Source of the DNA: Larkinella humicola
GTDB taxonomy: Bacteria > Bacteroidota > Bacteroidia > Cytophagales > Spirosomataceae
Reading direction: 5' to 3'
Length of the DNA stretch: 64,000 bases
NCBI RefSeq assembly: GCF_008727875.1
Contig: NZ_VTWS01000001.1
Coordinates: forward strand, 744,001 to 808,000
The translations under genes were made by a program, and so were the position numbers. This document shows, one piece after another, positions 12,365 through 40,535 of the stretch; the stretch's first letter is position 1; each line of letters opens with the position of its first letter. The notes under the pieces are model-generated. The model saw only the letters and a list, made by a program, of their open reading frames with translations, was not told where the DNA came from and did no database searches.

Positions 12365-12386
12365 GTCGTCGTTTCAGGCCACAAAA

Positions 12387-23240: not shown

Positions 23241-23273
23241 ATAAGGATCCGGTTTCTACGCCGGATTGATTCG

Positions 23274-24493: not shown

Positions 24494-25390
24494 ATGACTG
24501 GTTTTCAAACTGGAATTTCACTACTCCTCATTTTTTCGGGTACGCTACATGCGCAATTGACCACTCCGTATTTAAATCAGAATCCGCCCGGCATGGTCCC
24601 CAGCATATTTGCCCCTGATTTGGTTTCCTTAAAAGATCATTACGAATACGGGTCGGTTTTTTCGAGCGACGGTACGGAATTTTATTACGCAGTCATCATC
24701 AATAAAAAGCCTCAGATTCGGTGCATACGGTTTGAAAAAAACGCCTGGACCGCGCCCAAAATCGTCATTGGCAGTGATCAATATGAATACAATGATCCCT
24801 TTCTATCGCCGGATGAAAAGCGCCTGTATTTCATCTCGGATCGGGCCGTCGACGGGAAGGGAGAGAAGAAAGATTTTGACATCTGGTACATCGAGCGGAG
24901 AAAAAACGGCTGGTCGACTGTACCGGTGAATGCCGGGCCCGGCATCAACACCAGCAAGAATGAGTATTACATGTCCTTTACGAAAACAGGTACGATGTAC
25001 TTTTCATCGAATGGCGGGTCCGACCAATCTACCGATAAGAAGTATGACATCCGGTTTTCCAGGTATGCCAGAGGAAAATTCCAGCCTTCCCGGTCACTCC
25101 CCTCTACCATCAATACCGAACATTACGAAGCCGATGTTTTCGTGTCACCGGATGAGCAATACGTCATTTTCTGCGCCGAGCGCCCGGACGGATTTGGGAA
25201 AGGCGATTTATACATCAGCTTCAAAAGCAAAACCGGTGAGTGGCAAAAAGCAAAAAACATGGGTTCTGTGATCAATAGCGATGCCTACGAGTTTTGCCCC
25301 TTCATAACCACCGATGGCAAATACCTGTTCTTCTCCAGAGACGGTGATATTTTCTGGGTGAAAGCAGCGGTGCTTGACGGATTGAAATAA
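24494..25390 (+). CDS. Exported PD40 (WD40-like) beta-propeller protein
   Basis: The 298-aa product has a signal peptide (residues 1-20, ending LHAQ) and at least four PD40/TolB-like blades: YGSVFSSDGTEFYYAV, NDPFLSPDEKRLYFISDR, YYMSFTKTGTMYFSSN, EADVFVSPDEQYVIFCA and FCPFITTDGKYLFFSRDGD. Such proteins bind partners or peptidoglycan-associated complexes at the outer membrane or periplasm, and some are peptidase-associated. No catalytic domain follows. It stands alone with long gaps on both sides. Confidence 0.85.
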   Translation: MTGFQTGISLLLIFSGTLHAQLTTPYLNQNPPGMVPSIFAPDLVSLKDHYEYGSVFSSDGTEFYYAVIINKKPQIRCIRFEKNAWTAPKIVIGSDQYEYNDPFLSPDEKRLYFISDRAVDGKGEKKDFDIWYIERRKNGWSTVPVNAGPGINTSKNEYYMSFTKTGTMYFSSNGGSDQSTDKKYDIRFSRYARGKFQPSRSLPSTINTEHYEADVFVSPDEQYVIFCAERPDGFGKGDLYISFKSKTGEWQKAKNMGSVINSDAYEFCPFITTDGKYLFFSRDGDIFWVKAAVLDGLK

Positions 25391-25871
25391 TGGCGATGAT
25401 TCCTCCAAAAGCCCCTGAAATCGATTCATTGGCCGCATAAAAAAGGGATTAATCCGTCAAAGTCGGGACAAAACAAAATCCACCGGATGCACATGCCGCG
25501 CTGGTCAAAGCGTAATACCAGCGATCTTAACCGTTCGCTCAATACAACGCACAATCTTTAAAAAGTTTTTGTACGTTTAACCGTGATCATCAAACGGACA
25601 TGAATTATACGGACAAACGCAATCGTTATTCTGATTTTATCCGATAAAAATTACCAAATTAAAAGAATAAGATCCCGGTTAACGACTGTCACCTTACTGC
25701 TACGCATTCACTTTTCAAATACGGTTAACCCGTTCATTTCTTTTAAAAAATCTGCAGTACTCAACGTTATTTTTCACTACACTATTCCAGCCTCGTACGT
25801 TCAAACCGGGCCAATTTCTGTGTAGTTGATGCCTGCAAGGGTGTTTCGACTATTCTTCAACCTCTTATACC
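25391..25871. other. Gene-free AT-rich stretch
   Basis: No frame with coding character was seen on either strand. One copy of AACGTTATTTTT at 25763-25774 matches the motif that flanks the parA locus about 3 kb downstream. Otherwise I see nothing definite; the last ~100 bp presumably carry the promoter of the M15 peptidase gene. Confidence 0.4.
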
Positions 25872-26654
25872 ATGCAAGTTCTCAAACAAAATAGCAAAGG
25901 AGCCGATGTTAAAAAGTGGCAGTTATTTCTGATCGGGCAGGGTTTTGAACCCGGCGTGGCCGATGGCAAGTTTGGCCTGCGGACGCACGAAGCGACGGTT
26001 GCTTTTCAGAAGAAAAATAACCTGCTGGACGATGGCGTTGTCGGCAACAAAACCGTCGGTGTTGCCATGCAACTGGGCTTCCCGGTTTTGACCAACTCCG
26101 ACCCGGCCAAAGAAGGGCCCAATTGGCCTCAGAAACCCGATTTCTCCCCACTGGTTGGCCTTGCCGCCCGGCAATCGCTGTTCGGGAAGTTTAAATTCGC
26201 GGCTGCCCCCATTCCCGGAAACCCGGAGAACATCAAGATTCTGGACGACTGGGAATCCAAAAACATTGTCAAAGTGACCATACCGCAACTGATCGGAAAA
26301 ACCGGTGCTCCGGCCAATGGCACCATTCGATTCCACCATCTGGCTACTCCCCAACTCGTGTCGATGTGGGCCGAATGGGAAGATTCAGGCCTGCTCGATC
26401 TGGTGTTGAGTTATGCCGGATCGTTTGTGCCCCGGTTTGTTCGCGGCAGCCGCACCGAGTTGAGCAACCACGCTTTCGGTACGGCTTTCGATATCAATGT
26501 GCCTCAGAATATGCTGTCGACCATGCCCGCGCTGGTCGGGAAAAAAGGGAGTGTACGTGAACTGGTGCCGATCGCCAACAAACACGGTTTTTACTGGGGC
26601 GGCCACTTCACCCGGCTCGACGGCATGCACTTTGAAATAGCCAGGCTGATGTAA
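25872..26654 (+). CDS. Peptidoglycan-binding domain plus M15-type D,D/L,D-carboxypeptidase
   Basis: The 260-aa protein has an N-terminal PG_binding_1 domain (residues 1-70: GADVKKWQLFL, GLRTHEATVAFQKKN, DGVVGNKTV). The C-terminal peptidase M15/VanY-like domain has zinc ligands His200 and Asp207 in LSNHAFGTAFDINV and His253 in DGMHFEIA. It should trim peptidoglycan stems or act as an endolysin. There is no signal peptide, which together with the architecture is reminiscent of phage-type endolysins; export by another route or release at lysis is possible. Confidence 0.9.
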   Translation: MQVLKQNSKGADVKKWQLFLIGQGFEPGVADGKFGLRTHEATVAFQKKNNLLDDGVVGNKTVGVAMQLGFPVLTNSDPAKEGPNWPQKPDFSPLVGLAARQSLFGKFKFAAAPIPGNPENIKILDDWESKNIVKVTIPQLIGKTGAPANGTIRFHHLATPQLVSMWAEWEDSGLLDLVLSYAGSFVPRFVRGSRTELSNHAFGTAFDINVPQNMLSTMPALVGKKGSVRELVPIANKHGFYWGGHFTRLDGMHFEIARLM

Positions 26655-26670
26655 AAACCACTCCCAGACT

Positions 26671-28113
26671 TTATTTCCGGTAATCCAGCGGTGGTTTTCG
26701 ATCACCGGCCAGCGATTTATACACAAATCCTTCACCTCTCGCTTTGTTCAATTCAACTTTGGCCTGCCCGATGACAGCCGGTTGCTGAAAAAGATCGATG
26801 GCGGTCAGCGAAATGGTTTTGGCCGCCACCAGCATGCCTTTGAAACCGATCGACATGCCATCGCAGGCCACCGCCTGCCAGCTATGCGCCGGTACGCCCG
26901 GCACCCAGGTAGCCGTCGACAGCCCGACCGTTGGCAACACCCAACTGACATCTCCGACATCGGTGGACGCCGAACCCACGCCATTCAGGGCATACGGCTG
27001 AATATCGGAAGCGCGACTCAACGGCGGCAGACTTTCCGAATTGACGGTTTTCCGGATTTTGTTAGCGAATTCCGTTTCGGCGGCTGTATACTTGTTGCCC
27101 CCCACCTGCTCCAAATTCTTTTGCATGAGCTTTGCCAGGGTTTCGTTTGGCAGCAGGTTATAGAGTCCCGCCATCACTTCGTGGGTCATCGTCGTTTCGG
27201 TGCCGAGCGCAGCCGCCTGAGCGGTTTTCATCAATCGCGCCCACACTTCCTCCAGGCCTTTCGCCGACGGGTGGCGAATGGTGTATTCTACCTCGGCGTA
27301 GTCGGGAACGATGTTGGACGTCAGACCGCCTTTCTTGATAACGTAGTGAATCCGGGTGCTGGACGTCACGTGTTCACGCATCATGTTGACCATGTAGTTC
27401 ATCGCTTCGACGGCATCGAGGGCCGACCGGCCTTTTTCGGGTGCGGCCGCGGCATGAGCGGCCAATCCGTTGAACTGAAAGGTCGCCACGCGGTAGGCCA
27501 GCGAGGACGACGGACTCGCGCTGTTGTTATCGCCCGGATGCCAGTGTAGCACCGCGTCGACCTTATCGAAAAGACCCGCCTTGACCAGATACGTTTTACC
27601 ACCGCCCGCGCCTTCTTCGGCCGGAGTACCCACCAACTGAATCGTGCCGGTTTTACCGGACTGCTGCAAGTAGTTTTTGGCCGCAATGGCCGCAGCCACC
27701 GACCCCACCCCGAACAGATTGTGCCCACAGGCATGACCGTAGGCATTCGGTACGAGCGGTTTGCGAACCGGCACGGAATCCTGCGACAAACCGGGCAGGG
27801 CATCCATCTCGGCCAGAATGCTGACCACCGGTGCCCCTTTCCCGAAACTGGCCACAAAGGCCGTAGGCATATCTGCCACGCCCGTCGTAATGCTGAAACC
27901 CTGATCCTGTAGTTCTTTTTGGAGCAGTTTGCTGGTTTCATTCTCCAGGTAACCGGGTTCAGCCAGTTTCCAGATTCGCTGCGCGAGAGCTGAATAATGG
28001 GAATATTGTTTGTCTAAATGAGAAATGGCCGCAGCTTTTTCTTTTTGAGCGACAACCGATTGCCCCAATAAAAATACCACTAACAGCACAAATACTAACC
28101 TTACCTGAAACAT
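26671..28113 (-). CDS. Exported M20-family amidohydrolase (AbgB-like)
   Basis: The 480-aa product begins with a signal peptide (FVLLVVFLLGQSVVAQ, cut near residue 22). The M20D fold shows ILAEMDALPGLS, NAYGHACGHNLFG (metal ligands), GTPAEEGAGGGKTYLV (catalytic Glu pair) and VLHWHPGDNN. The sequence is closest to p-aminobenzoyl-glutamate hydrolase subunit B and related amide hydrolases. Because it is exported it probably cleaves N-acyl amino acids or peptides in the periplasm. It is convergent with the M15 peptidase, stops 16 bp apart. Confidence 0.9.
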   Translation of the reverse strand: MFQVRLVFVLLVVFLLGQSVVAQKEKAAAISHLDKQYSHYSALAQRIWKLAEPGYLENETSKLLQKELQDQGFSITTGVADMPTAFVASFGKGAPVVSILAEMDALPGLSQDSVPVRKPLVPNAYGHACGHNLFGVGSVAAAIAAKNYLQQSGKTGTIQLVGTPAEEGAGGGKTYLVKAGLFDKVDAVLHWHPGDNNSASPSSSLAYRVATFQFNGLAAHAAAAPEKGRSALDAVEAMNYMVNMMREHVTSSTRIHYVIKKGGLTSNIVPDYAEVEYTIRHPSAKGLEEVWARLMKTAQAAALGTETTMTHEVMAGLYNLLPNETLAKLMQKNLEQVGGNKYTAAETEFANKIRKTVNSESLPPLSRASDIQPYALNGVGSASTDVGDVSWVLPTVGLSTATWVPGVPAHSWQAVACDGMSIGFKGMLVAAKTISLTAIDLFQQPAVIGQAKVELNKARGEGFVYKSLAGDRKPPLDYRK

Positions 28114-28203
28114 AAATAGAAATTTTAGATGGAAAATTTGGAGGTAGCACCAAAAATCAAAATAATCAATTGAATCACGTTCAATATAAAAGGTTAAGGT
28201 AAC

Positions 28204-28590
28204 ATTGACAACAAAAAAGTTCTCTGGCTCTTCTTTCTGACTACCTTTTCTACAGCCATCACCTTTGCAAGTCGTGCGTCAGATTTCAGCCGTTCTCCCG
28301 CCCCGGAAAGAGTACGACCGCGAGCTGATGGTACTTCCGTTTACTATGACCACAAGCCGCTCAGTGGTTGAATACGAAGATTTGATCAGGGAAATGCACA
28401 ACCCGAGAACAAAACCGATCCGAAGGAAACACCGTAGGTCATTTCGGGCAGGGTGCGAAACGAACAGACGCTTACCGAACAAGGCACGGTTTCCAACGTT
28501 CGGGTGTCCGCTTAGGGTCATTCCATTCCCGTTCGGTCTCCTGAACCGGTACTCAAACGCCGGCGATACTTCGTTGGCTTAAAGTACCTT
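28204..28590 (+). pseudogene. Remnant of a small secreted protein gene
   Basis: From 28204 the frame reads IDNKKVLWLFFLTTFSTAITFASRA, a convincing signal peptide but with ATT where ATG is expected. It continues ADGTSVYYDHKPLSG and then hits a stop at 28369-28371. Coding-like sequence resumes in another frame (EGNTVGHFGQGAKRTDAYRT, about 28421-28480) before further stops. This pattern fits a decayed gene with frameshifts. I do not recognise the ancestral family. An alternative is a chance arrangement, but the signal peptide makes that less likely. Confidence 0.45.
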
Positions 28591-28654
28591 AGCTCATTTA
28601 GTATCAGTTCACTAAAACGTGAATTTACCGTTAAAAACAACGTTAATTTCATAC

Positions 28655-28678
28655 ATCGTTTTTGACGTCAAAAATGAT
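28655..28678. promoter_or_regulatory. 24-bp palindrome upstream of parA (operator or parS-like candidate)
   Basis: ATC-G-TTTTTGACGTCAAAAA-T-GAT is symmetric over 24 bp with a single mismatched pair; the central 16 bp are perfect. It is 176 bp before the parA ATG. Function is inferred from symmetry and position only. Confidence 0.5.
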
Positions 28679-28854
28679 CACATTTTATAAACGTTTCATC
28701 CACATTGCCACTTTCGCGGATAGGCGAAAGTGACGGCATCAGGCGTGTTGACTGGCCTTGGTTTCACCTTCATTTTAACGTTAAATAAGACGCTTTTTAT
28801 AAGGTGATTCTTTACAGTATATTTGACGTTTTAATCAACGTTAACCAGAACAGT

Positions 28855-29520
28855 ATGATTTTTACTTTAGGCGGAATCAAGGGCGGAAGCGGCAAGTCCA
28901 CCATTGCTACGAACCTCACCGTATGGTTGTCTAAACAGGGCTTCGATGTTTTGCTGGTGGATGCCGACGAACAACAGACGGCCACTAAATTCACCAAATG
29001 GAGGGAGATGAACACCGACGGAAATGGCGGTTATACCGCAACCGTGCTAACCGGTGATGCCGTCCGTCAGCAGGTGACAAAATTCAAACCCAAGTTCGAT
29101 CACATCGTTATCGACTCCGGTGGACGCGATACGATGAGCCAGCGGGCGGCTCTCTTCGTGTCGGATGCGCTTCTGGTTCCTTTCAACCCGCGCAGTTTCG
29201 ATTTATGGACCATCACCGACGTCGAAAATCTGGTGAGAGAAGTCCGCGCGCTGAAACCGACCGACCTGCACGCGTTTGCCCTCCTGAACCGTGCCGATCC
29301 GAAAGGCACCGACAACAAAGACTCGGCCGAACTGCTCCAGGAAAGCAGCGTCATCGAATACGTGGGCCCGCCCATCGTCTCGCGCAAAAGCTTTGCCAAT
29401 GCTGCTACCAACGGCCTTGGGGTAATCGAAAACCAGCCTGCCGATCAGAAAGCCATTCACGAAATCACCCTGGTTTTTAAACTCATTATGGAAAAATTAG
29501 GCACAAAAATGAACGTCTGA
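28855..29520 (+). CDS. ParA-family partition ATPase
   Basis: I start at ATG 28855 (MIFTLGGIKGG); a GTG frame start at 28804 adds 17 residues that cross the AACGTT repeats. The 221-aa product carries the deviant Walker A GIKGGSGKST with signature Lys9 and Lys14, LLVDADEQQTA, and Walker B-like HIVIDSGGRDT. The short length without an N-terminal HTH is typical of type Ib plasmid ParA or MinD-like island-borne proteins. A small basic protein follows 49 bp later. It probably segregates or positions DNA, or is a remnant of an integrated plasmid or mobile element. Confidence 0.92.
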   Translation: MIFTLGGIKGGSGKSTIATNLTVWLSKQGFDVLLVDADEQQTATKFTKWREMNTDGNGGYTATVLTGDAVRQQVTKFKPKFDHIVIDSGGRDTMSQRAALFVSDALLVPFNPRSFDLWTITDVENLVREVRALKPTDLHAFALLNRADPKGTDNKDSAELLQESSVIEYVGPPIVSRKSFANAATNGLGVIENQPADQKAIHEITLVFKLIMEKLGTKMNV

Positions 29521-29523
29521 AAT

Positions 29524-29547
29524 AACGTTGAAAAATACGTTATTTTT
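29524..29547. promoter_or_regulatory. AACGTT-type sites between parA and its partner gene
   Basis: AACGTT at 29524-29529 and AAAAATACGTTATTTTT at 29531-29547 lie in the 49-bp gap between the two genes. They resemble the copies before parA and after the partner (AATAACGTCATTTTT near 29911 and GTAACGTTATTCC near 29936). Confidence 0.5.
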
Positions 29548-29569
29548 AACCTCATAAAAAACGTCCGTT

Positions 29570-29890
29570 ATGGCTATATCAAAAGCGCCGGAACCACCGA
29601 AACCGGAGCAACCAACCCGAAAAGTTTCCGAGAAAAAGATCCAGCAATTCATCAGCCAGGGAGGCAGTCCAACCGCAAAAAACCGGATGGATCAGGACAT
29701 TCCGGATGAGATGAAGAGCATCAAACTCATTATGACCGCCACCGAAATGGAGACCATCAAACAACTCCGCGACAAACGCCCCCGGAGCCGCAGCCGGAAA
29801 ATTACGATCTCCGTTCACGACTGGGTGATCGAAGCCATTCAGGAGAAGATCGAACGCGAAAAAAAGAAGTATAGTTTGACGTCCATTTAG
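29570..29890 (+). CDS. Small basic protein, probable ParA partner (RHH-like C-terminus)
   Basis: The 106-aa protein has a Pro/Lys/Glu-rich, probably disordered first ~55 residues. Its C-terminal segment SIKLIMTATEMETIKQLRDKRP then RKITISVHDWVIEAIQEKIEREKKK has a strand-helix-helix pattern like ribbon-helix-helix DNA-binding proteins. Position after parA and AACGTT-type sites on both sides (29524, 29909, 29936) fit a centromere-binding partner and autoregulator. No ParB or HTH motif is visible. The function is inferred from context. Confidence 0.7.
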   Translation: MAISKAPEPPKPEQPTRKVSEKKIQQFISQGGSPTAKNRMDQDIPDEMKSIKLIMTATEMETIKQLRDKRPRSRSRKITISVHDWVIEAIQEKIEREKKKYSLTSI

Positions 29891-29949
29891 ACCTCTTTTT
29901 CAACACCGAAAATAACGTCATTTTTAGCTCTCAAAGTAACGTTATTCCT

Positions 29950-30018
29950 AGTGCTTTGCAACAACTTGAATCAGGCAAAGTGAAAAATCCTGCCTGGTTC
30001 AAGTTGTTGCAAAGCACT
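29950..30018. repeat. 28-bp inverted repeat downstream of the parA pair
   Basis: Arms 29950-29977 and 29991-30018 (AGTGCTTTGCAACAACTTGA...) are reverse complements with one mismatch, with a 13-nt A-rich loop. No T-run follows. It could be a strong transcription stop, a small MITE-like element, or the scar of a lost mobile element at the island boundary. Confidence 0.8.
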
Positions 30019-30724
30019 TACCCACCCGTTTAGTGGGTACTCCATTCGGCAGCCCGCCTTCCATTTCATTGCCCAAACCGGGTGAACCGACCAGCCCCGA
30101 ACACTACGCGCTTTTTTACGGGCCAACCAAAGTCTTGCATCCCATTAAAATGATCCTTCTGAATAGCCCCTTTTTCTTGCTTCTCAGGCCGATCCATTTA
30201 GTACAATCTCCTACAATTTAGATTTCACACAGGTTAAATAGGATTAATCCAACGACCCATGGTTGATTTCGAATGGGATAGCCTCAGACCATGAATTCAT
30301 CCATGACCTTGTGTCTGGTATTTCTACAAAAGCTCCAGGCAACATAGGGGTGCGATATGAGGAAAAATACTTAATTTGTTGAAAATAATTTACAAGTAAT
30401 CGTGTGAATTATTTTAATTACTATTTAATTTGCATTCTCATGATTTTTATTAGACGAAATCCTGATATCTCCTTGAGATTACCACACGGGTGCAATCTCA
30501 TTCGAGATAAAAGATTTGCTTTATAACACGCTCGTCCTGTGCCATCTACAAATCGCATGGTTTGTATGTGCATCTCATTTTTATGAACACCTCTGCCGTT
30601 TAAAAATAGCATTCGAGCTTATATCCATTAACTTTATCATCTTAATCTTACCCCTAAGAAAGTATAGGATTACCTTCATTTAGGGCGATTACTGTACATT
30701 ACTGAACGTTAAAAAAAATATTAA
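30019..30724. other. Gene-free, partly AT-rich stretch before the NRPS genes
   Basis: No convincing gene is seen. A stop-free segment without ATG at about 30248-30381 reads SNDPWLISNGIASDHEFIHD and onward, and may be the tail of a lost gene. A 63-codon minus-strand frame at 30421-30612 exists but has no recognisable features. Base composition becomes clearly AT-rich from ~30380 to 30724. AACGTTAAAA at 30705-30714 lies just before the NRPS start. The NRPS promoter should be here, but no clear TAnnTTTG was found. Confidence 0.45.
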
Positions 30725-33700
30725 ATGGAACGATATGATCCTGAAGCCATCGAGATTGTTCTATTGCAACAGACCGGTATTCAGCAGGCTGTCGTACTAA
30801 CGCGGGAGAATCAAGTAGCTCATAAGATGTTAGTTGCTTATTTGGTAACGACTGAAACCGAACTGGAAATTTCCGCCATTCGGGCAGCTATCGAACAGCA
30901 GTTACCTGATTTTATGCCCCCCTCCCATTTTATTTGGATGAAAGAACTCCCCAGAACGGTTACGGGGGAAATTGATAAAACGGCTTTGCCCGCTCCTGAT
31001 TTTATGATTCCCTTTCCTAAAGATAAAACGATCATTACCTTATTTCGTGAGCAGGTTCAAAGAACGCCGGATAAGGTAGCTATGCGTTTCAATGATCACT
31101 ACATAACGTACCAAGAACTGGACGATAAATCCAGTCAATTGGCTAATTATCTTAAAAAAAAGGGTGTAAAAGCCAGCACACTGGTCCCCATTTGCATGAA
31201 TCGCTCTCTGGAGTTGCTGGTAGGCATTCTGGGGATTCTGAAGGCTGGCGGTGCCTATGTACCTATTGATCCGGAATACCCGCAGGACCGGGTTGCGTAT
31301 ATGCTTTCTGATAGCGATAGCTGTCTGGCAGTTACGGATGTTCCCTCCAGTGTTTTGTTGAAAGGCCGGGAGAAATTGGAACCGGTGTTTATAGACCGGG
31401 ACTGGGAAATGATTGCCCGGGAATCCAGCCAGCCACCTTCCAATGCCTTTACTCCTCAGGATCTGGCTTACGTCCTCTACACCTCAGGCTCCACGGGCAA
31501 ACCCAAGGGCGTACTGATTGAACACCACAACCTGGTGAATTTCCTTTGGAGCATGATCGACCAGCCCGGCATCACTGCGAACGATACCATTCTGGCGGTC
31601 ACGACCATTTCCTTCGATATTGCCGGCCTCGATCTGTTCCTGCCCCTGATTGTGGGAGCCTCCGTACGGCTGACCGATCTGACTACGGCCCGCGACGGCC
31701 GCGCTTTGCTCAACCTGATCGAGAACCAGAACATCACCATCATGCAAGCTACTCCGTTCACGTGGCGGATGATGCTCGATTCGGGCTGGAAGAAGTCCCT
31801 GCCGCTGAAAGTGCTCTGCGGGGGCGAACCCATGGCTCAGGATCTGGTGGAGAAGCTTACCGGCAAAGCGGCTGAAATATGGAACCTGTATGGCCCTACA
31901 GAAACAACCGTTTGGGCCACCGTGAAACACATCCGGGCGGGCGAAACGATTACCGTGGGCCGTCCGATCCATAACACCCTGGTTTACATCCTGGATGAGC
32001 ACCAACAGCCGGTAGCGGAAGGCGAGGTCGGGGAATTGTGGATTGGGGGAGCGGGGGTCGCGCGGGGGTATCTGAACCGCCCCGAATTGACCCGGGAACG
32101 GTTTGTGGCCGATCCGTTTGCCGGAACAGCAGGCGGGCGGATGTACCGTACCGGCGATCTGGGGCGGTTTCTGGAAAACGGCGAAATTCTCTGCCTGGGC
32201 CGCATCGATCATCAGGTCAAAATCAGAGGCTATCGGATTGAACTCGGCGAAATTGACAACGTCCTGCATCAGTTTCCCGGCGTCAAACAGTGTGTCGTCG
32301 ATGCCAAGGAAGGGCCGGGCGGAGACAAACGCCTGATCGGATACATTCTTCCCGAAGGCGAATTTAATAAACAGGAAGCGATCCGGTTTTTGCAATCCAA
32401 GCTGCCGGACTACATGGTTCCGCAATTGTTGATGGAACTGGCTGAAATTCCGTTGACCAGCAATGGCAAGGTCGACCGCAAGGCGTTACCCAACCCCGAT
32501 GCCTCCGAGCTGCTAACGAGGGCATTCATATCGCCGGGTACGAAAGTTGAAAACAACCTGGTAGACCTCTGGATAGAACTCCTGAAAGTAAGCCATGTCA
32601 GCATTCAGGATAACTTTTTCGAGTTAGGCGGCAATTCGTTTCTGGCATTGCGGATGGTGCTCAGTCTGAAAGAAAAGTATGCCTATGACTTGCCCGTTAC
32701 GACCATTTATCAATACCCGACGGTGGCCGGGCTGGCCGGTTTTCTGGAAGGCAAAAAAGGGAACACCGCCAAAAAACGAAAGACCGTAAACCGCTCGGGT
32801 AGCACGGGCGACATCGCCGTCATCGGCATGGCCGGGCGTTTTCCCGGCGCCAACACGATTGAAGAGTTGTGGACGGTTTTGAAAGAAGGCCGGGAAACCA
32901 TTTCTTTTTTCACCAATGAAGAACTGGACCACTCGTTGCCCGCCGAACTGACGCAGGACGCAAACTACGTGAAAGCCCGGGGCGTCGTTACAGGCGCCAG
33001 TCAGTTCGACCCCCGCTTTTTTGGCCTGAATCCGAAACTGGTAGAACTCATGGACCCCCAGCAACGGATTTTCCTTGAAATTGCCTGGGAAGCCCTGGAG
33101 CATGGCGGTTATTTACCCCAAAAGTATGACGGATTGATTGGGGTGTATGCGGGCTGTGGCAACAACACCTATTACTACAACCATGTGCTGACCAATCCAT
33201 TCCTGATGAATCAGGTCGGTAGCTATCAGGTGATGACCGCGAATGAAAAAGATTACATCGCCACCCGGACGGCCTACCAGCTGAATTTGACGGGTCCGGC
33301 GGTCAGCGTTCATTCCGCCTGTTCAACGTCGCTGTTGGCGATCGCGCAGGCCGTCGACAGCCTTCGCAACGGCCAGTGCGATGTTGCCCTGGCGGGCGGC
33401 TCCAGTATTCGGGCTCCATTGAACAGTGGTCATCTCTACGAGGAAGGGTCCATTTACAGCCGCGACGGGCATTGCCGCTCGTTCGATTCGGATGCACAGG
33501 GCACGGTTTTCAGCGACGGTGCGGGCGTAGTATTGCTAAAAAATGCCGAAACCGCCCGACAGGACGGCGACACCATCTACGCCCTCATCAAAGGAACCGG
33601 CGTCAACAACGACGGAAGCGGCAAGGGGAGTTTTACGGCTCCCAGTGCTGAAGGCCAGGCAGGGGCCATCCGAATGGCGATCGACGATGCCCGCGTCGAT

Positions 33701-36214
33701 CCGGCGACCATCAGCTACGTTGAAGCCCACGGAACGGCCACCCCAATCGGCGATCCCATCGAAATTGAAGGGTTAAAAATGGCTTTTGGGAATCAGGTCC
33801 CCACCCAATATTGCGCCATCGGTTCCATCAAAAGCAACATGGGACACCTGGACGCTGCCGCCGGAGTAGCCGGATTTATCAAAACGGCCCTGGCGTTGCA
33901 TCACAAACAGATTCCGCCTTCACTCCATTTCTCGACGCCGAATCCGGCCATTGATTTCGCCAACAGCCCGTTTTTTATGAATACTGCGTTTGGTGCCTGG
34001 CCAGCGTCGGTTTCAAATCCTGACCAGCCCCGCCGGGCAGGCGTCAGCTCTTTCGGGGTAGGCGGAACGAATGTTCATATCGTACTGGAAGAGTTTGTCA
34101 ATGAGGGAGTAACGCCCGCGACCGATTCGGCAGAACCGCAACGCCCGGTTCAATTGATCACCTGGTCGGCCAAATCGACGGCCAGCCGGGAAGCGTATGG
34201 CTCGCTTCTGGCAGCGCACCTGCAGCAAAACCGGTCTTTGAATTTGGCGGATGTGGCGTTTACCCTGCAAACGGCCCGGGCGGATTTTAACCACCGGCGG
34301 TTTGTGACCGCCCCGTCGGTGGAAGTACTGATCGAGCAATTAAGAATTGAAACCATCCCGGGCGCAAACCAGAAAACGCTGCAGGAGCCACCGGGCGATG
34401 TCGTCTTTCTTTTTCCGGGGCAGGGCGCGCAATACCTCAACATGGGCCGTGACCTGTATGAGAACGAACCGGTGTACAAACAGGCCGTGGACCACTGTGC
34501 CGACTTGCTTCGCGAACACCTGGAGATCGATATTCGACAGGTTCTGTTTCCCGACGAAACCAACCGCGAATCGGAAGAACGACTCAAAAACACGCGGTTT
34601 ACGCAGCCCGCTATTTTTGTTACTGAATATGCTCTGGCAAGGGTATGGCTGAGTTGGGGCATCGAACCCACGGTTTTCTGTGGCCACAGCATTGGTGAAT
34701 ATGTCGGAGCGCATCTGGCCGGTATCTTTTCGCTGGAAGATGCCATCCGGCTGATTGCGGTTCGTGGCCGGCTGGTGAGCGAACTTCCTACGGGCAGTAT
34801 GCTTTCGGTACGCGCCAGCGCAGAGCAAATGGCTACTTTGATTCCCGAAACCTTGTCTGTGGCGGCTTTCAACAGCCACTCCCTGTGTGTCGTTGCTGGT
34901 GAAGATGAAGAAATTGCCTGTTTTGCCCGCCTGTTGGATCAAAAAGAAATCCCAAATCGGGTGCTGGCAACGAGCCATGCGTTTCACTCGAACATGATGG
35001 ATTCAGTTGTTCCGGTTTTTGAGAAAACCGTTCAGCAGGTTCGTTTGCACCAACCCCGAAAACCGGTCATTTCGACGGTGAGCGGCACCTGGATGACGGA
35101 TGCTCAGGCGACGGATCCGGCCTACTGGGCCACCCACCTGCGCCTGCCTGTGCGCTTTGCCGATGCCCTGGACTCTCTTTTTGAATTGAACCGACCGGTT
35201 CTGCTGGAAGTTGGACCCGGCAGTGGATTGACCACCCTGGCCCGTCAGCAGGCGGGTTCCAGACCAGCCACTCTGGTGACCAGCCTGGACCGAAAAGGGG
35301 TGCCAACCGATTATCAGGCGTTGCTCAACGGTCTGGGTCAGGTGTGGCTCAACGGCCTGGAACCCGACTGGGAAGCATTCTACCGCCATCAAACCCGGTT
35401 AAAAGCTGACCTGCCCACGTATGCTTTCGATCGAAAACGGTATTGGGTCGATCCCCCAAAAACCGCTGCGCCCGGAATCAGCCCGCTACCTGGTTCGGAT
35501 GAGCAGGCGCCACTTCGACCGGAGGCCGCACAGCCCCAAACCACGAGCCGCAAAGAAGTTCTTCTCCACATCGTGCGGGAGAAGCTAAAAAACGCATCCG
35601 GCCTGGCGGTGGACCAGATGCGACCGGAACTGAGCTTTTATGAAATGGGGCTCGATTCGTTGCTGCTGACCCAGGTTTCTTCTACCCTGAAAAAAGAGTT
35701 TGGGTTGCCCATTACGTTCCGCCAACTGAACGAACAATACGGCACGCTGGATGCCCTGGTGGCCTACCTCGACCGGGACTTGCCGGCGGGAGCTTATGAG
35801 CCTCAGCCATCCGCTCCGGGGTCCCAACCGGCTCCGGCTCCCTCCCATCCGGGAACTCCCGTTTTGAGTAACGATCCTGCCCTGGATCAAATGGCCAGGC
35901 AGTTGCAGCTCCTGACCGAAAAAATTGAATACCTCCAGAGTACCCTTCAGAACCTGCCCTCCCTGGCTTCGCAGGCTGTTCTGCCGGGCCTGAATGGAGC
36001 CGCTAAACCCAGTTCCGTCAAAACTGTGGAAGCGATCGTGGAACGGCCAAAATCCGTACTAAAAATGCCCCGATCCGAGCGGCCGGTTCCGGATTATGCC
36101 TTCAGCGAACCGCCCGTTCCGGGGGCTCGTCTAGGCAAAGACCGGGATGGAAATCCAGCCTGGTTCATTTCAGACCCCGAGAAACCCGGGAGCTATTTAC
36201 AGATTATACTCTAA
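30725..36214 (+). CDS. Hybrid NRPS-PKS: orphan A-subdomain, A, PCP, KS, AT, ACP
   Basis: The 1829-aa megasynthase has this order. Residues 1-95 are a lone C-terminal adenylation subdomain (DPEAIEIVLLQQTGIQQAVV to TGEIDKTALP). A full A domain follows, 100-590 (TSGSTGKPKG at 253, YGPTETT, GELWIGGAGVARGYLN). The PCP has Ser638 in ELGGNSF. The KS runs 696-1120 with Cys866, His1002 and His1041. The AT runs 1225-1520 with Ser1322 in GHSIGEYVG and HAFHS, indicating malonyl-CoA. The ACP has Ser1645 in GLDSLL. The tail is Pro-rich with a short coiled coil. There is no KR, DH or ER, so the beta-keto group should remain. My pocket reading D-I-L-Q-L-G-L-V-W matches glycine-type codes. No C domain precedes A, so it acts as the loading unit. 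It is followed after 5 bp by the C-A-PCP-TE gene. Confidence 0.95.
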   Translation: MERYDPEAIEIVLLQQTGIQQAVVLTRENQVAHKMLVAYLVTTETELEISAIRAAIEQQLPDFMPPSHFIWMKELPRTVTGEIDKTALPAPDFMIPFPKDKTIITLFREQVQRTPDKVAMRFNDHYITYQELDDKSSQLANYLKKKGVKASTLVPICMNRSLELLVGILGILKAGGAYVPIDPEYPQDRVAYMLSDSDSCLAVTDVPSSVLLKGREKLEPVFIDRDWEMIARESSQPPSNAFTPQDLAYVLYTSGSTGKPKGVLIEHHNLVNFLWSMIDQPGITANDTILAVTTISFDIAGLDLFLPLIVGASVRLTDLTTARDGRALLNLIENQNITIMQATPFTWRMMLDSGWKKSLPLKVLCGGEPMAQDLVEKLTGKAAEIWNLYGPTETTVWATVKHIRAGETITVGRPIHNTLVYILDEHQQPVAEGEVGELWIGGAGVARGYLNRPELTRERFVADPFAGTAGGRMYRTGDLGRFLENGEILCLGRIDHQVKIRGYRIELGEIDNVLHQFPGVKQCVVDAKEGPGGDKRLIGYILPEGEFNKQEAIRFLQSKLPDYMVPQLLMELAEIPLTSNGKVDRKALPNPDASELLTRAFISPGTKVENNLVDLWIELLKVSHVSIQDNFFELGGNSFLALRMVLSLKEKYAYDLPVTTIYQYPTVAGLAGFLEGKKGNTAKKRKTVNRSGSTGDIAVIGMAGRFPGANTIEELWTVLKEGRETISFFTNEELDHSLPAELTQDANYVKARGVVTGASQFDPRFFGLNPKLVELMDPQQRIFLEIAWEALEHGGYLPQKYDGLIGVYAGCGNNTYYYNHVLTNPFLMNQVGSYQVMTANEKDYIATRTAYQLNLTGPAVSVHSACSTSLLAIAQAVDSLRNGQCDVALAGGSSIRAPLNSGHLYEEGSIYSRDGHCRSFDSDAQGTVFSDGAGVVLLKNAETARQDGDTIYALIKGTGVNNDGSGKGSFTAPSAEGQAGAIRMAIDDARVDPATISYVEAHGTATPIGDPIEIEGLKMAFGNQVPTQYCAIGSIKSNMGHLDAAAGVAGFIKTALALHHKQIPPSLHFSTPNPAIDFANSPFFMNTAFGAWPASVSNPDQPRRAGVSSFGVGGTNVHIVLEEFVNEGVTPATDSAEPQRPVQLITWSAKSTASREAYGSLLAAHLQQNRSLNLADVAFTLQTARADFNHRRFVTAPSVEVLIEQLRIETIPGANQKTLQEPPGDVVFLFPGQGAQYLNMGRDLYENEPVYKQAVDHCADLLREHLEIDIRQVLFPDETNRESEERLKNTRFTQPAIFVTEYALARVWLSWGIEPTVFCGHSIGEYVGAHLAGIFSLEDAIRLIAVRGRLVSELPTGSMLSVRASAEQMATLIPETLSVAAFNSHSLCVVAGEDEEIACFARLLDQKEIPNRVLATSHAFHSNMMDSVVPVFEKTVQQVRLHQPRKPVISTVSGTWMTDAQATDPAYWATHLRLPVRFADALDSLFELNRPVLLEVGPGSGLTTLARQQAGSRPATLVTSLDRKGVPTDYQALLNGLGQVWLNGLEPDWEAFYRHQTRLKADLPTYAFDRKRYWVDPPKTAAPGISPLPGSDEQAPLRPEAAQPQTTSRKEVLLHIVREKLKNASGLAVDQMRPELSFYEMGLDSLLLTQVSSTLKKEFGLPITFRQLNEQYGTLDALVAYLDRDLPAGAYEPQPSAPGSQPAPAPSHPGTPVLSNDPALDQMARQLQLLTEKIEYLQSTLQNLPSLASQAVLPGLNGAAKPSSVKTVEAIVERPKSVLKMPRSERPVPDYAFSEPPVPGARLGKDRDGNPAWFISDPEKPGSYLQIIL

Positions 36215-36219
36215 CACGA

Positions 36220-39200
36220 ATGGTAGCAAATTTTACGATGCCTAAAACGATAGCGGTTGATTTTGACCCCTTTGCCGGTCCAGAAATTGCACAAATAGCA
36301 CCGTCTACCGGGCCGCAAACCGAGATCTGGATCGCTTGTCTGTTAGGGGGAGATCATGCGAACCGATCCTATAATCTGACGAACTCGCTGCGACTGGAAG
36401 GGGCTTTTGATCGGTTGGCCATGATGCAGGCAATACAGGCGGTTGTAGACCGGCACGATGCTTTACGATCCGTCGTTAGTCCTAACGGCGAACACCTGTA
36501 TGTTTATAAAGAACTGCGGGTTGATATTCCCTACCAGGATCTTTCCCGAAACCCGGCGGACCAAAAAGACCGCGTGTTCGCGGCCTATCTGGAACAGGAC
36601 ACGATGCATGTATTTGACCTGGTGCAGGGTCCCTTGCTGAAAGTGGGTCTGTTCAAGGTATCGGAACAGGTGCATGAATTGGTGCTGACCACGCACCACA
36701 TCATCAGTGATGGCTGGTCGATGGGCGTCATTCTGCACGATTTGAGCGTCTTTTATTCCAGTTTTGTCACCGGCACCCTTCCCGAACTACCCGAAGCGCC
36801 TTCGTTTGCGGAATTTGCCACCCGCCAGTTTCAGTATTTGAGCAGTGAAGACTACCTTCAGACGGAAGCATTCTGGGTGAATCTGTACAAAAAGAAGATT
36901 CCGGTTTTTGATTTGCCCACCGATTTTCCCAGACCGGCATCCCGCACCTTCGACTGCCACCGCCTGGATTATACCCTCGAACAGGCTCTGGTGACCGCCG
37001 TTCGGAAAGTGGCCGCAAAGGCCGGCTGCAGCTTTGCCACTACCCTGCTGGCGGCTTTCGAGGTATTGATCCACCGGCTGACCGGGCAGGACGACGTCAT
37101 CATCGGTTTGCCGACAGCCGGACAATCCATCACAGATTACCAGCAATTGGCGGGGCATTGTGTCAATTTGTTACCCTTACGCAGCCAGATCGAAACGGGT
37201 CTCGGTTTTTCTGACTTTTTAAAACACTGTAAAAAATCGGTTCTCGATGCGCATGAGCACCAGCGCCTGACGTTTGGCAGCTTACTGAGAAAATTAAACG
37301 TTCCCAGAGATATTTCCAGGGTGCCGCTTGTGCCGATCATCTTTAATTTCAATCGGAAAGACGGCGATTTCAGCTTCCACGGACTCTCCCACCGGGTCGT
37401 GTACCAGCCCAAAAAGTACGAAAATTTCGAGCTGTTTCTGGATGTCAGTGGCGACGATCAGGCACTCATGCTGAATTGGACGTATAATACCCAATTGTAT
37501 AAGGCGGAGACCATCGACCGGATGATGACCGGACTGGTACGGATTCTGGAAACCGTGGTGGCCGATGCTTCCATTGCCATACGCGACATCGATTTGAAAC
37601 CGGAGAAGACCCGGAAGAAAAACTGGGTCCCTTTAACTTACACGGAAACAGATTACCCTTTCCATACGCCGACGCAAACCCTGATTGCCCAAATCGCCCG
37701 GCAGTATCCAACCAAAACAGCCCTCTACTTTAACCGGCAGGAACTAAGCTACCGGCTATTGAACGAAACGGCCAACCAACTCTCCCGCTTCCTGACCCAA
37801 AAGGGGGTTCGGCGTGGAGACATTGTTGGCATTATGCTGGATCGTTCGCCCGAAATGGTCATGATCCTGCTGGCGGTTCTGAAAGCCGGTGCCGCCTACC
37901 TGCCGCTGGACCCCGATTATCCTGCGGATCGTTTGCAGTTTATGCTCGAGGATGCGTCGGCCAAAACGCTGATTACCTCTGAAAAATACCACCACTACCT
38001 GAACACGGACACGCCTGAAATTCACCTGGAGACCGCGTTACAAGAGTCCAAAAACCACTCGAAGGAGGAGCCTGAACAGGTTGTGGAAGGAAATGACCTG
38101 GCGTACGTGCTCTATACATCGGGTTCCACCGGCAAACCCAAGGGTGTGCTCATCGAACACCACAACCTGGTGAATTTCCTCTGGAGCATGATCCAGCAGC
38201 CCGGCATCGCACCCAGCGATATCGTCCTGGCGATCACCACCATTTCCTTCGACATTGCCGGCCTTGAACTGTTTCTGCCCCTGATCGTGGGAGCCTCCAT
38301 CCGGCTGGCCGATCAGGCCACCGCCCGCGATGGCCGCGCTTTGCTCGACCTCCTGGAGAACCAGCCCATTACCATCATGCAAGCCACTCCCGCCACCTGG
38401 CGGATGGTGCTCGATTCGGGCTGGGACAAGCCCCTGCCGCTGAAAGTGCTCTGCGGGGGCGAACCGCTGTCACCGGATCTGGCCGACAAGCTCCTCGAAA
38501 AAACCGATGAGCTCTGGAACGTGTACGGCCCCACCGAAACCACGGTCTGGGGCACCCTGAAACACATCCAAAAAAACGAGCCGATTACGATTGGCCGTCC
38601 CATCCACAACACCTGGGTTTACATCCTGGATGAACAGCAGCAGCCGGTGGCCGACGGCGAAATCGGGGAACTGTGGATTGGTGGCGCGGGGGTGGCGCGG
38701 GGGTATCTGAACCGCCCCGAGTTGACCCGGGAGCGATTTGTGGCCGATCCGTTTGTGGCGACGCCGGGAGGCCGGATGTACCGCACCGGCGATCTGGGGC
38801 GGTTACTGGACAACGGCGAAATCCTGTGCCTGGGCCGCATCGATCATCAGGTAAAAATCAGAGGACACCGCATCGAACTCGGCGAAATTGAGAATACCAT
38901 CCACAAAATTGCGGAAATCAAAGAAGTGGTGGTCATCGCCCGGGAAGACCGCCCCGGCGACCAGCAGTTGGTGGCCTATGTCGTGCCCGAATCCCCGCAA
39001 GACGATCTGGCCCTCCCAAAAGAGCGCGTTCAGCAGTGGAAACAGCAACTCCGGCAGCAGCTTCCAGACTACATGATTCCCCGCGCTTTTGTGGCGCTGG
39101 CGAAATTCCCGATCACCGCCAACGGAAAAGTAGACCGGAAGGTGTTGCCCGTGCCCTCTGTGACCGAACGGGACAGTGAAACCGGTTTTATGAGTCCGCG

Positions 39201-40248
39201 AACGGATGTAGAAAAACTGGTAGCCGAAATCTGGACCGAGTGTTTGAAGATTGAAAACATCAGTGTGTTCGATAATTTTTTTGAACTGGGGGGCCATTCG
39301 CTGACGGCGGTGCAGGTGATGAGCCTTCTGGAGAAAAAAACCGGCAAGCACCTGCCACTGGCGACCCTCTTCGAATACTCGACCATCGAAAAACTGGCGT
39401 CGATCCTGCACATGAATGGCCGGTCGGTTACCTGGGATTCACTGGTTCCAATCAAACCGCACGGCAGCAAAATTCCGCTATACATCGTCCACGGTGCGGG
39501 CCTGCACGTGCTGTTGTTCAACACGCTGGCCTTGAGCATGGATCCCGATCAACCGGTTTATGGCTTGCAGGCCAAGGGAATCAACAGTGAGGATCAGCCG
39601 CTTGAGAGTATCGAAGAAATTGCGGCCTATTACATCGACGCCATCAGGGCCCAGAATCCGGAAGGCCCGTATGCCTTAGCCGGGTATTCATTTGGGGGGA
39701 TCATCGCCTATGAAATGAGCAAACAACTCCTGAAAATGGGGAAAGAGGTGAAAATGCTGGCGATGTTCGATACGTATGCGTATCAGTCTAATTTTTACGA
39801 TCCCTGGCCCGCCAAAGCCTGGCAGAACACCATCACCGCGATTAAAGAGCGGCTGTTTGTGCTGACGCTCTTAAAAGAGAATCCCCGGGAAACCGTAATC
39901 ACCATAACCCGGTCGCTACAGAAAAAAGCAACCCGGCTGTATCGAAAAATTCGTTACAACGAAGACCATCTCAAAGTGTTTCATGGCAACTATTACAAAG
40001 TAAATGAAGCCAACGAAATAGCGTCCCGGAAGTACCAGCTGGAGCCCCAGGAGGTAACAGTAACGTTATTTCGAGCCAAAAAGCACAGCTACTACGTAGA
40101 TGACTTTGAACACCTGGGCTGGAAACCGTTCGCTTTGAAAGGGATTACCATTCACGAAGTACCCGGCGACCATTTCAATTTGTTTACGTCGCCCAACGAC
40201 AAAGAATTTGCCCGGATCTTACAGGAAGTTCTGGATCGCTTACCTTAA
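36220..40248 (+). CDS. NRPS terminal module: C, A, PCP, TE
   Basis: The 1342-aa protein has a condensation domain (residues ~30-450) with HHIISDGWS, His159-His160 and Asp164-Gly165, and an A domain ~480-985 (TSGSTGKPKG at 633, YGPTETT). The PCP follows with Ser1027 in LGGHSL. A type I thioesterase ~1060-1340 has Ser1157 in AGYSFGG and His1318 in PGDHFNLF. The pocket residues I read, D-I-L-Q-L-G-V-V-W, again match glycine-type codes. It should condense the beta-ketoacyl chain from the upstream protein with a second glycine and release it. Release by Dieckmann cyclisation to a tetramic acid is possible but unproven. No epimerase or MbtH protein is seen, and the window has no phosphopantetheinyl transferase. 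Confidence 0.95.
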   Translation: MVANFTMPKTIAVDFDPFAGPEIAQIAPSTGPQTEIWIACLLGGDHANRSYNLTNSLRLEGAFDRLAMMQAIQAVVDRHDALRSVVSPNGEHLYVYKELRVDIPYQDLSRNPADQKDRVFAAYLEQDTMHVFDLVQGPLLKVGLFKVSEQVHELVLTTHHIISDGWSMGVILHDLSVFYSSFVTGTLPELPEAPSFAEFATRQFQYLSSEDYLQTEAFWVNLYKKKIPVFDLPTDFPRPASRTFDCHRLDYTLEQALVTAVRKVAAKAGCSFATTLLAAFEVLIHRLTGQDDVIIGLPTAGQSITDYQQLAGHCVNLLPLRSQIETGLGFSDFLKHCKKSVLDAHEHQRLTFGSLLRKLNVPRDISRVPLVPIIFNFNRKDGDFSFHGLSHRVVYQPKKYENFELFLDVSGDDQALMLNWTYNTQLYKAETIDRMMTGLVRILETVVADASIAIRDIDLKPEKTRKKNWVPLTYTETDYPFHTPTQTLIAQIARQYPTKTALYFNRQELSYRLLNETANQLSRFLTQKGVRRGDIVGIMLDRSPEMVMILLAVLKAGAAYLPLDPDYPADRLQFMLEDASAKTLITSEKYHHYLNTDTPEIHLETALQESKNHSKEEPEQVVEGNDLAYVLYTSGSTGKPKGVLIEHHNLVNFLWSMIQQPGIAPSDIVLAITTISFDIAGLELFLPLIVGASIRLADQATARDGRALLDLLENQPITIMQATPATWRMVLDSGWDKPLPLKVLCGGEPLSPDLADKLLEKTDELWNVYGPTETTVWGTLKHIQKNEPITIGRPIHNTWVYILDEQQQPVADGEIGELWIGGAGVARGYLNRPELTRERFVADPFVATPGGRMYRTGDLGRLLDNGEILCLGRIDHQVKIRGHRIELGEIENTIHKIAEIKEVVVIAREDRPGDQQLVAYVVPESPQDDLALPKERVQQWKQQLRQQLPDYMIPRAFVALAKFPITANGKVDRKVLPVPSVTERDSETGFMSPRTDVEKLVAEIWTECLKIENISVFDNFFELGGHSLTAVQVMSLLEKKTGKHLPLATLFEYSTIEKLASILHMNGRSVTWDSLVPIKPHGSKIPLYIVHGAGLHVLLFNTLALSMDPDQPVYGLQAKGINSEDQPLESIEEIAAYYIDAIRAQNPEGPYALAGYSFGGIIAYEMSKQLLKMGKEVKMLAMFDTYAYQSNFYDPWPAKAWQNTITAIKERLFVLTLLKENPRETVITITRSLQKKATRLYRKIRYNEDHLKVFHGNYYKVNEANEIASRKYQLEPQEVTVTLFRAKKHSYYVDDFEHLGWKPFALKGITIHEVPGDHFNLFTSPNDKEFARILQEVLDRLP

Positions 40249-40281
40249 TACCCGGTTTTTACCTTTTTATTCCGGTATACG

Positions 40282-40497
40282 ATGGCAATCATTACGAATC
40301 TTGATCCCGAACGAAGAATTCTACCCCACGGAACCCTTTTAGTCGAAGAGGTTTCCATGGACGAGGAGGTTTGGTGTGCGGTGGAAGAATTTCTGGAAAA
40401 AAACGGAAAAGTCAATGAACTGTATTTGAATACGAATTTTCACATCAACACCGAAGGCAAATGCATCGTACGTTTGTCGAAGAAAACCTCGGTCTGA
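40282..40497 (+). CDS. 71-aa protein of unknown function in the NRPS operon
   Basis: It begins 33 bp after the TE stop and is probably co-transcribed. The product is acidic in the middle (VSMDEEVWCAVEEFLEKNG) and ends with a predicted strand pair (VNELYLNTNFHINTEGKCIVRLSKK). It lacks the MbtH signatures, so I do not call it MbtH. It could be an accessory subunit, immunity or tailoring factor. No homologous family was recognised. Confidence 0.65.
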   Translation: MAIITNLDPERRILPHGTLLVEEVSMDEEVWCAVEEFLEKNGKVNELYLNTNFHINTEGKCIVRLSKKTSV

Positions 40498-40535
40498 AGG
40501 GGAAGAAGCAAGCCGTTTTTCCCCGGTCCTCTCTT

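What the first reader, a model, noticed from the sequence alone, without database searches (positions are those of the whole stretch)
30725..40248. Compact two-protein NRPS-PKS-NRPS line predicted to make a Gly-malonate-Gly product
Domain order, read directly, is A-PCP-KS-AT-ACP then C-A-PCP-TE in two adjacent genes 5 bp apart. Aligning both A domains to the known pocket positions gives DILQLGLVW and DILQLGVVW, which match glycine-type codes as I recall them. The AT has HAFHS (malonyl) and no reductive domains are present. The predicted intermediate is a beta-keto-acyl-glycyl thioester. A Dieckmann-type release would give a small 3-acyl tetramic acid bearing an aminomethyl group; simple hydrolysis would give a linear keto-dipeptide. 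I know of no described Bacteroidota pathway with this exact architecture. No tailoring enzyme, transporter, MbtH or phosphopantetheinyl transferase is in the window.
Basis: partly seen in the sequence, partly recalled or inferred. Interest (0 to 1): 0.75.

Follow-up and report, generated by a model that had tools for sequence, protein, structure and literature searches.

The report
Stripped-down glycine-malonate-glycine assembly line
A Larkinella bacterium carries a small two-protein enzyme line, predicted to join glycine, a two-carbon unit and another glycine, which seems to have arisen from a widespread Bacteroidota line by losing its amino-group-adding part and by copying one of its own glycine-selecting segments over another.

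Summary
In detail: two genes 5 bp apart encode A-PCP-KS-AT-ACP and C-A-PCP-TE, with the tested catalytic motifs intact. The A2 code (DILQLGVVW) is identical to that of AB3403, solved with glycine; A1 (DILQLGLVW) is one residue from glycine-loading DhbF.

The line does not stand alone. Of 52 related loci fetched from its GTDB family, 50 carry an aminotransferase (AMT) after the ACP; 43 of 52 also hold a C-domain protein. The two without AMT are the window line's own orthologues. The window KS nests inside the AMT-bearing clade, so AMT was lost, in frame, keeping the tail behind it; two lines in another family lost it separately.

A1 is a mosaic: its A3-A8 core is 82% identical to the line's own A2, its flanks are not, and an extra A-subdomain remnant without the catalytic lysine sits at the N-terminus. 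dN/dS indicates that the line is maintained.

Most likely product: an unaminated beta-keto Gly-C2-Gly chain. Whether it leaves linear or as a tetramic acid is undetermined, and no product or role is known.

The parts
30725..31000 (+). Protein 1 aa 1-92: orphan A-domain C-terminal subdomain (Asub), likely remnant of an earlier KS-side A domain; A10 Lys replaced (TGEIDK)
   Evidence: AMP-binding_C, 2 stretches in protein 1; 20 of the top 20 hits outside the orthologues are KS-side A domains, best 57%; dN/dS 0.28-0.30 against 0.01-0.23 in the other regions; motif; also in L035 at 49%
31013..31462 (+). A1 N-terminal part (aa 97-246), KS-side lineage
   Evidence: 15 of top 20 hits KS-side, 4 C-side, 1 unassigned; best six 52-57%
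31469..32239 (+). A1 A3-A8 core with substrate pocket (aa 249-505), inferred to be converted from A2; code DILQLGLVW
   Evidence: 82% aa identity to own A2 with sharp edges; DNA repeats 84-85%; 20 of 20 top hits outside the orthologues C-side; code
32252..32524 (+). A1 C-terminal part (aa 510-600)
   Evidence: 12 KS-side, 7 C-side, 1 unassigned of top 20; the single best hit is C-side (L080, 67%); A10 SNGKVDR
32558..32746 (+). PCP1 (aa 612-674)
   Evidence: PF00550; GGNSF
32810..33931 (+). KS (aa 696-1069)
   Evidence: PF00109 and PF02801; Cys/His/His motifs
34403..35296 (+). AT (aa 1227-1524), GHSIG/HAFHS
   Evidence: PF00698; motifs
35585..35854 (+). ACP (aa 1621-1710, limits approximate)
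   Evidence: second PP-binding stretch; GLDSL at aa 1642
36050..36106 (+). Approximate site of the in-frame loss of the class III aminotransferase domain present in relatives
   Evidence: alignment of the ACP-to-tail region of the window, two orthologues and six relatives
36107..36211 (+). C-terminal tail (aa 1795-1829, EPPVPGARLG...YLQIIL) that follows the AMT in relatives; inferred linker to the next C domain
36220..40248 (+). Protein 2, C-A-PCP-TE, 1342 aa, without the methyltransferase insert
   Evidence: the insert is in 16 of 41 related proteins counted
36292..37617 (+). C domain
   Evidence: PF00668, HHIISDG
37690..39129 (+). A2, code DILQLGVVW; inferred donor core 38104-38874
39217..39402 (+). 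PCP2
   Evidence: PF00550
39475..40221 (+). Type I thioesterase
   Evidence: PF00975; alignment of 53 TEs
28804..29520 (+). ParA/MipZ-like ATPase; 93-94% orthologues only in the other two of 9 Larkinella genomes that have the line; context, not shown to act in the pathway
23250..40530 (.). Variable segment (about 17 kb) holding the line; absent in G058 and G071, and in G082 an interval of 5.5 kb in which only one gene-sized stretch matches

Best explanation
A maintained NRPS-PKS-NRPS line that has been reprogrammed naturally. A1 loads glycine on PCP1; KS and a malonyl AT extend it to 4-amino-3-oxobutanoyl-ACP; because the aminotransferase that follows the ACP in relatives has been deleted, the chain is passed on as the beta-ketone; C joins it to glycine on PCP2; the serine TE releases it. 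The simplest product is 4-amino-3-oxobutanoyl-glycine (C6H10N2O4, [M+H]+ 175.0713), or after cyclisation 3-(aminoacetyl)tetramic acid (C6H8N2O3, [M+H]+ 157.0608). Shown by sequence: domain order, pocket codes, motifs, absence of AMT, A1 mosaic, purifying selection. Inferred: direction of the A2-to-A1 copy, substrates, transfer of the ketone, release chemistry. Unknown: biological role.
For: Domains and motifs. Glycine codes read off the printed alignment with 4zxh and 5u89 and from my own alignment; PMC11253843 (passages) lists 4ZXH/4ZXI (printed there as AB3404) with ligands Gly and AMP and 5U89 (DhbF) with Gly, and describes a Trp that closes the DhbF pocket and hydrogen-bonds a Gln. AMT in 50 of 52 fetched family loci, missing in the two window orthologues; Aminotran_3 at 5e-43 in the relative L030. 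Window KS nested in the AMT-bearing clade; the KS-AT tree needs two AMT losses. A1 core 82% identical to A2, outside 8-64%; the A tree puts A1 with C-side A domains; of the 52 KS-side A domains of relatives read, only the two orthologues have a DILQ code. dN/dS 0.01-0.23 in the domains and tail among three species. No close free-standing AMT in nine Larkinella genomes: fused copies 80-100%, the rest 28-37%.
Against: No product or expression data. The same genome holds a full AMT line (L025) whose AMT might act in trans. A free gamma-amine on a beta-keto thioester may cyclise off the ACP by itself (general chemistry, not tested). The C domain descends from C domains that presumably receive beta-amino chains. 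Codes predict substrates, they do not prove them; PMC6668435 calls AB3403 uncharacterised (passage). Trees are quick ones with SH-aLRT only, and flags long branches among the outgroups and L136/L137.
Confidence: 0.62

Rival explanations
1. The aminotransferase of the paralogous line on contig C14 (or another class III aminotransferase) works in trans, so the product is still a beta-amino compound, 3,4-diaminobutanoyl-glycine ([M+H]+ 176.1030).
For: The three genomes with the AMT-less line each carry a fused AMT line too; PF00202 has nine hits in the own genome.
Against: The AMT is fused inside another protein; five of the six Larkinella genomes without the AMT-less line also have a fused AMT, so co-occurrence says little.
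Confidence: 0.13
2. A decaying relic, partly non-productive: the orphan subdomain, mosaic A1 and lost AMT are signs of decay.
For: The orphan Asub has lost its A10 Lys and shows relaxed constraint.
Against: Tested catalytic motifs intact, open frames in three species, dN/dS 0.01-0.23 in the other regions.
Confidence: 0.08
3. 4-Amino-3-oxobutanoyl-ACP cyclises by itself to pyrrolidine-2,4-dione ([M+H]+ 100.0393), so the second protein works little or only on other donors.
For: General chemistry of gamma-amino-beta-keto thioesters (recalled); no domain in the line acylates the first amine.
Against: Protein 2 is under purifying selection like protein 1, and the tail before the C domain is kept.
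Confidence: 0.08
4. One or both A domains take a small non-glycine substrate such as alanine or beta-alanine.
For: Codes alone are predictive only; the glycine references rest on crystal ligands and assignments in print, and I tested no substrate.
Against: Identity of the A2 code with AB3403, and the Q and W positions described as shaping the DhbF glycine pocket.
Confidence: 0.09

Closest known systems
Bacteroidota A-PCP-KS-AT-ACP-AMT // C-A(-NMT)-PCP-TE lines (Larkinella and other genera of its GTDB family; Ferruginibacter, Mariniflexile, Flavobacterium, Mucilaginibacter, Gelidibacter)
   Same: Same order, homologous domains, same C-terminal tail; 16 of 48 C-side A domains read have a DILQ[LI]GxxW code, two of them the window orthologues
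   Different: Window lacks AMT and NMT, has a glycine-type mosaic A1 and an orphan Asub. My paper searches gave no description of these lines.
AB3403 (4ZXH/4ZXI), C-A-PCP-TE
   Same: Best match spans aa 120-1333 of protein 2; identical nine-residue code
   Different: No PKS part in the solved chain
DhbF (5U89), glycine-loading A1
   Same: Code differs at one position; Q and W pocket residues shared
   Different: Bacillibactin NRPS crystallised with an MbtH-like protein; no MbtH hit in this genome
Desotamide/wollamide A-domain recombination (PMC9205934)
   Same: Intragenomic exchange of an A-domain core with an ornithine/glycine change (passages)
   Different: There between two NRPS loci of a Streptomyces, motifs A2 to A5/A6; here within one line, A3 to A8, in a line that also lost an aminotransferase
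Microcystin/iturin-type PKS modules with an aminotransferase (recalled); embedded PLP domains surveyed in PMC3870968 (passages)
   Same: AMT after the ACP in the relatives of the window line
   Different: AMT deleted here

Membership tests
Bacteroidota A-PCP-KS-AT-ACP-AMT // C-A-PCP-TE line | Shared core domain order | tested here: met
Bacteroidota A-PCP-KS-AT-ACP-AMT // C-A-PCP-TE line | KS within the family clade | tested here: met
   SH-aLRT 100 for the clade of 57 rows that holds it; quick tree, midpoint root
Bacteroidota A-PCP-KS-AT-ACP-AMT // C-A-PCP-TE line | Conserved ARLGxDxxGNPAWF tail before the C domain | tested here: met
Bacteroidota A-PCP-KS-AT-ACP-AMT // C-A-PCP-TE line | Class III aminotransferase after the ACP | tested here: not met
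   hence an AMT-less derivative, not a typical member
Glycine-activating A domain | Pocket residues of structures assigned to glycine | tested here: met
   A2 identical to 4zxh, A1 one residue from 5u89
Glycine-activating A domain | Glycine-dependent ATP-PPi exchange | not testable with these tools
   needs purified protein
Tetramic-acid (Dieckmann) PKS-NRPS | Unreduced beta-ketoacyl donor and a terminal amino acid | tested here: met
   by domain content only: no reductive or AMT domain, glycine-type A2
Tetramic-acid (Dieckmann) PKS-NRPS | Release domain with known Dieckmann activity | tested here: inconclusive
   TE shares Ser, Asp, His with AMT-bearing lines, no diagnostic residue
Malonyl-specific AT | GHSxG and HAFH motifs | tested here: met
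   the meaning of the motif is recalled

The most novel reading that the evidence does not exclude
Deleting the aminotransferase and copying the glycine pocket from A2 into A1 together switched the line from beta-amino dipeptides to a new minimal scaffold: an N-(beta-ketoacyl)glycyl thioester is a suitable Dieckmann substrate, so the line makes 3-(aminoacetyl)tetramic acid. The separate loss of AMT in a second family, also with a glycine-type A2, would make this a repeated natural route from beta-amino to beta-keto products. (The AMT-bearing relative of that second case has a glycine-type A2 too, so A2 did not change with the loss.)
Probability: 0.25. Interest if true: 0.68.

Novelty: new variant of a known kind. 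Interest (0 to 1): 0.5.

Why it matters
It is a compact natural example of assembly-line reprogramming for which related unaltered lines are at hand: a domain deletion that kept linker and tail, and an A3-A8 exchange whose edges can be read from sequence, both in a line that stayed under purifying selection. Such junctions are of interest for NRPS-PKS engineering. It also points to a large family of hybrid lines in Bacteroidota, many of them beside polysaccharide genes, for which I found no described product.

Tried and rejected
Isolated architecture: rejected. Assembly artefact: rejected, three genomes agree. Frameshifted upstream A domain as source of the N-terminal Asub: I saw none in the stop-to-stop frames (by eye). 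MBL-fold gene 40536-41249 as a tailoring enzyme: it occurs in 6 of 9 Larkinella genomes, three of them without the line, so taken as a flanking gene. LgrA as glycine reference: it ranked first but its A2 did not give this code by eye, so I used a 119-residue pocket query. Repeats around ParA as a partition-type site: WAACGTTA has 6 matches, which are 3 palindromic sites read on both strands, against 3.56 expected; 15 of 100 shuffles reach 6. TE residues specific to AMT-less lines: none. Structure prediction was not run.

Rows left out and limits. In one search, 44 of 150 genomes matched, but at most three candidates a genome were scored, so lines are undercounted. I fetched 57 loci, of which 52 hold a KS protein of this kind. 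Not fetched: weaker or partial matches (G016:C7, G046:C14, G056:C64, G058:C7, G067, G068:C20, G077, G137, G130:C1:4.78 Mb with two stops). The hit counts leave out the window and its orthologues. The 41 proteins leave out L035 and L080, whose second A domain matched A1 better. In one search, 52 of 390 genomes matched with at most two candidates scored each; outside the window's family I fetched five lines (three with AMT, two without); the others were not inspected, among them short frames in G177, G239, G267, G320 and G415. The TE set of 53 includes one unrelated NRPS of the own genome (L026).
Full report
What is there. Pfam confirms A-PCP-KS-AT-ACP and C-A-PCP-TE without reductive domains, and the tested motifs are intact. 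Beyond the finding, aa 1-92 of protein 1 are an additional A-domain C-terminal subdomain. The window lies in a 7.86-Mb genome.

Substrates. Recomputing the codes by alignment gives DILQLGLVW and DILQLGVVW. A query with the 119-residue A1 pocket region finds four solved sequences at E up to 1e-8; the two best are 4zxh and the DhbF cross-module 5u89. Reading the code positions off that alignment, 4zxh (AB3403) gives DILQLGVVW and DhbF DILQLGLIW. PMC11253843 (passages seen) lists both with substrate Gly, printing the first as AB3404, and describes the DhbF pocket as closed by a Trp that hydrogen-bonds a Gln, the W and Q of both window codes. Against this, PMC6668435 calls AB3403 uncharacterised (passage). 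The AT has GHSIG and HAFHS, read as malonyl-specific from recall.

Relatives. A search of 150 genomes of the GTDB family, the own one included, gave matches in 44 at E up to 1e-100. Of 57 loci fetched, 52 hold a KS protein of this kind; 50 carry an aminotransferase after the ACP, and the two that do not are the window orthologues L027 and L028 (L080 is split over two frames and its AMT lies on the second). 43 of the 52 loci also hold a C-domain protein, fused to the KS protein in two. In the relative L030 Pfam names the extra domain Aminotran_3 (5e-43) and the insert in A2 a methyltransferase. Of 41 C-A2-TE proteins counted, 16 have that insert; the window does not. Five named genomes of other Bacteroidota families carry an AMT line of the same order, one of them cut by the contig end.

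Loss of the aminotransferase. The window trio lies, with SH-aLRT 100 for the enclosing clade of 57 rows, among AMT-bearing Bacteroidota lines, and lines of Ruegeria, a Pseudomonadales and an Oligoflexia genome, outside that clade, also carry AMT. Aligned against six relatives, the region between the ACP linker and the EPPxPxARLG tail is missing in frame. In 390 genomes of the order, 52 matched the KS-AT-ACP part; two of the short frames, in G341 and G400, proved to be further AMT-less lines, while three other lines fetched with them have AMT. The KS-AT tree of 66 rows (61 with AMT, 5 without) needs two changes, and starred branches force both; it is a quick tree that flags long branches. The second pair has A1 code DVLYSSAVN and A2 code DILQLGVIW.

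A1 is a mosaic. In 25-residue steps A1 and A2 of the window are 64-100% identical from aa 249 to 498 of protein 1 and 8-64% outside; aa 249-505 against 629-885 of protein 2 is 82%, and two 300-base stretches at one spacing of 6635 bases are 84 and 85% identical. Outside the orthologues, the top 20 hits of the core are all C-side A domains, those of the N-part 15 KS-side and 4 C-side, those of the orphan Asub all KS-side, those of the C-part 12 KS-side and 7 C-side with a C-side best hit. The A tree places A1 beside the C-side domains, and among the 52 KS-side A domains read only the two orthologues share a DILQ code. The simplest reading is that an A2 core was written into a KS-side A domain; the origin of the C-part is open. 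A known precedent for intragenomic exchange with an ornithine/glycine change is the wollamide/desotamide case (PMC9205934, passages seen). An orphan Asub with a similar start also stands in L035 of another genus (49%), so it may be older than the trio; the A10 lysine is replaced by Glu in all three.

Maintenance and context. dN/dS among the three species is 0.01-0.23 in the domains and the tail; the orphan Asub is 0.28-0.30. The line sits in a 17-kb variable segment: in G058 and G071 the sequences matching window 23.2 kb and 40.54 kb lie within about 80 and 170 bases of each other; in G082 they are 5.5 kb apart and only the M15-peptidase stretch in between matches the window. A ParA-like gene has 93-94% orthologues only in the other two genomes of the trio. 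Two PPTase-family genes lie on other contigs; no MbtH was found; no close free-standing AMT exists in nine Larkinella genomes. Of the other window genes scanned none looks dedicated to the line; there is an MFS-type gene at 12387-13745 and an acyltransferase at 6245-7387, both far off.

Mechanism. Gly-PCP1, malonyl extension, unreduced and unaminated ketone, condensation with Gly, TE release. The first three steps follow from domain content and codes; transfer and release are inferred. The TE keeps the Ser, Asp and His found in all 53 aligned TEs and has no residue specific to AMT-less lines, so hydrolysis is at least as likely as Dieckmann closure.

Literature. The one held paper with Larkinella and an NRPS is, by its listing, on a Bacillus. 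Searches listed no paper that I recognised as describing these lines; I opened only a few. PMC7272551 (passages) reports antiSMASH PKS and NRPS clusters in two Spirosoma genomes, without architecture in the passages seen. PMC9248904 (passages), a 600-genome survey of Bacteroidetes clusters, names neither Larkinella nor Spirosoma in its main text. Only the open-licence library was searched, so this is weak evidence of absence.

Noticed in passing
L038, L042, L055, L057-L060, L062-L064, L067, L068, L070, L071, L074, L075, L077: 17 of 59 neighbour-analysed loci carry an outer-membrane efflux protein and a large protein that looks by eye like a polysaccharide chain-length determinant (no Pfam hit) near the hybrid line; 12 of these 17 also a family-2 glycosyltransferase, 10 a polysaccharide flippase. 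Eight other loci have a family-1 glycosyltransferase. One representative of each cluster was scanned. The lines may serve polysaccharide loci.
   Followed up: partly
L043, L044, L048, L051, L054, L056, L061: A-PCP-KS-AT-ACP-AMT proteins with code DFWNIGMVH (Thr-like from recall), a GNAT acetyltransferase gene upstream and no C-domain gene in the fetched stretch.
   Followed up: no
L033, L034, L040, L041, L047, L052, L053, L065, L078-L080, L085-L088: A PPTase-type gene lies in the same locus as the line (15 loci; one representative scanned).
   Followed up: no
L134 (G400) protein 1, near its C-terminus: A short stretch before the tail looks by eye like the last helix of the lost aminotransferase; not tested.
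   Followed up: no
L035, L080: C-side A domains with codes DPEHIGKIS and DFWSIGIIY that fall among KS-side A domains in the tree: further swaps, in the other direction.
   Followed up: partly
window 29950-30018: Hairpin with arms of about 28 bases, -48.5 kcal/mol, z -11.8, after the small gene behind ParA; no other copy in the genome; the two orthologous loci have strong hairpins of other sequence in the same stretch.
   Followed up: partly
L026 (G000:C8) 4877-12582: A separate NRPS pair in the same genome with codes DIVQMCLIY and DAFFLGVTF.
   Followed up: no
L030 17829-19601: Two similar genes directly downstream of the AMT line; the first is cupin/JmjC-type, a possible hydroxylase.
   Followed up: no
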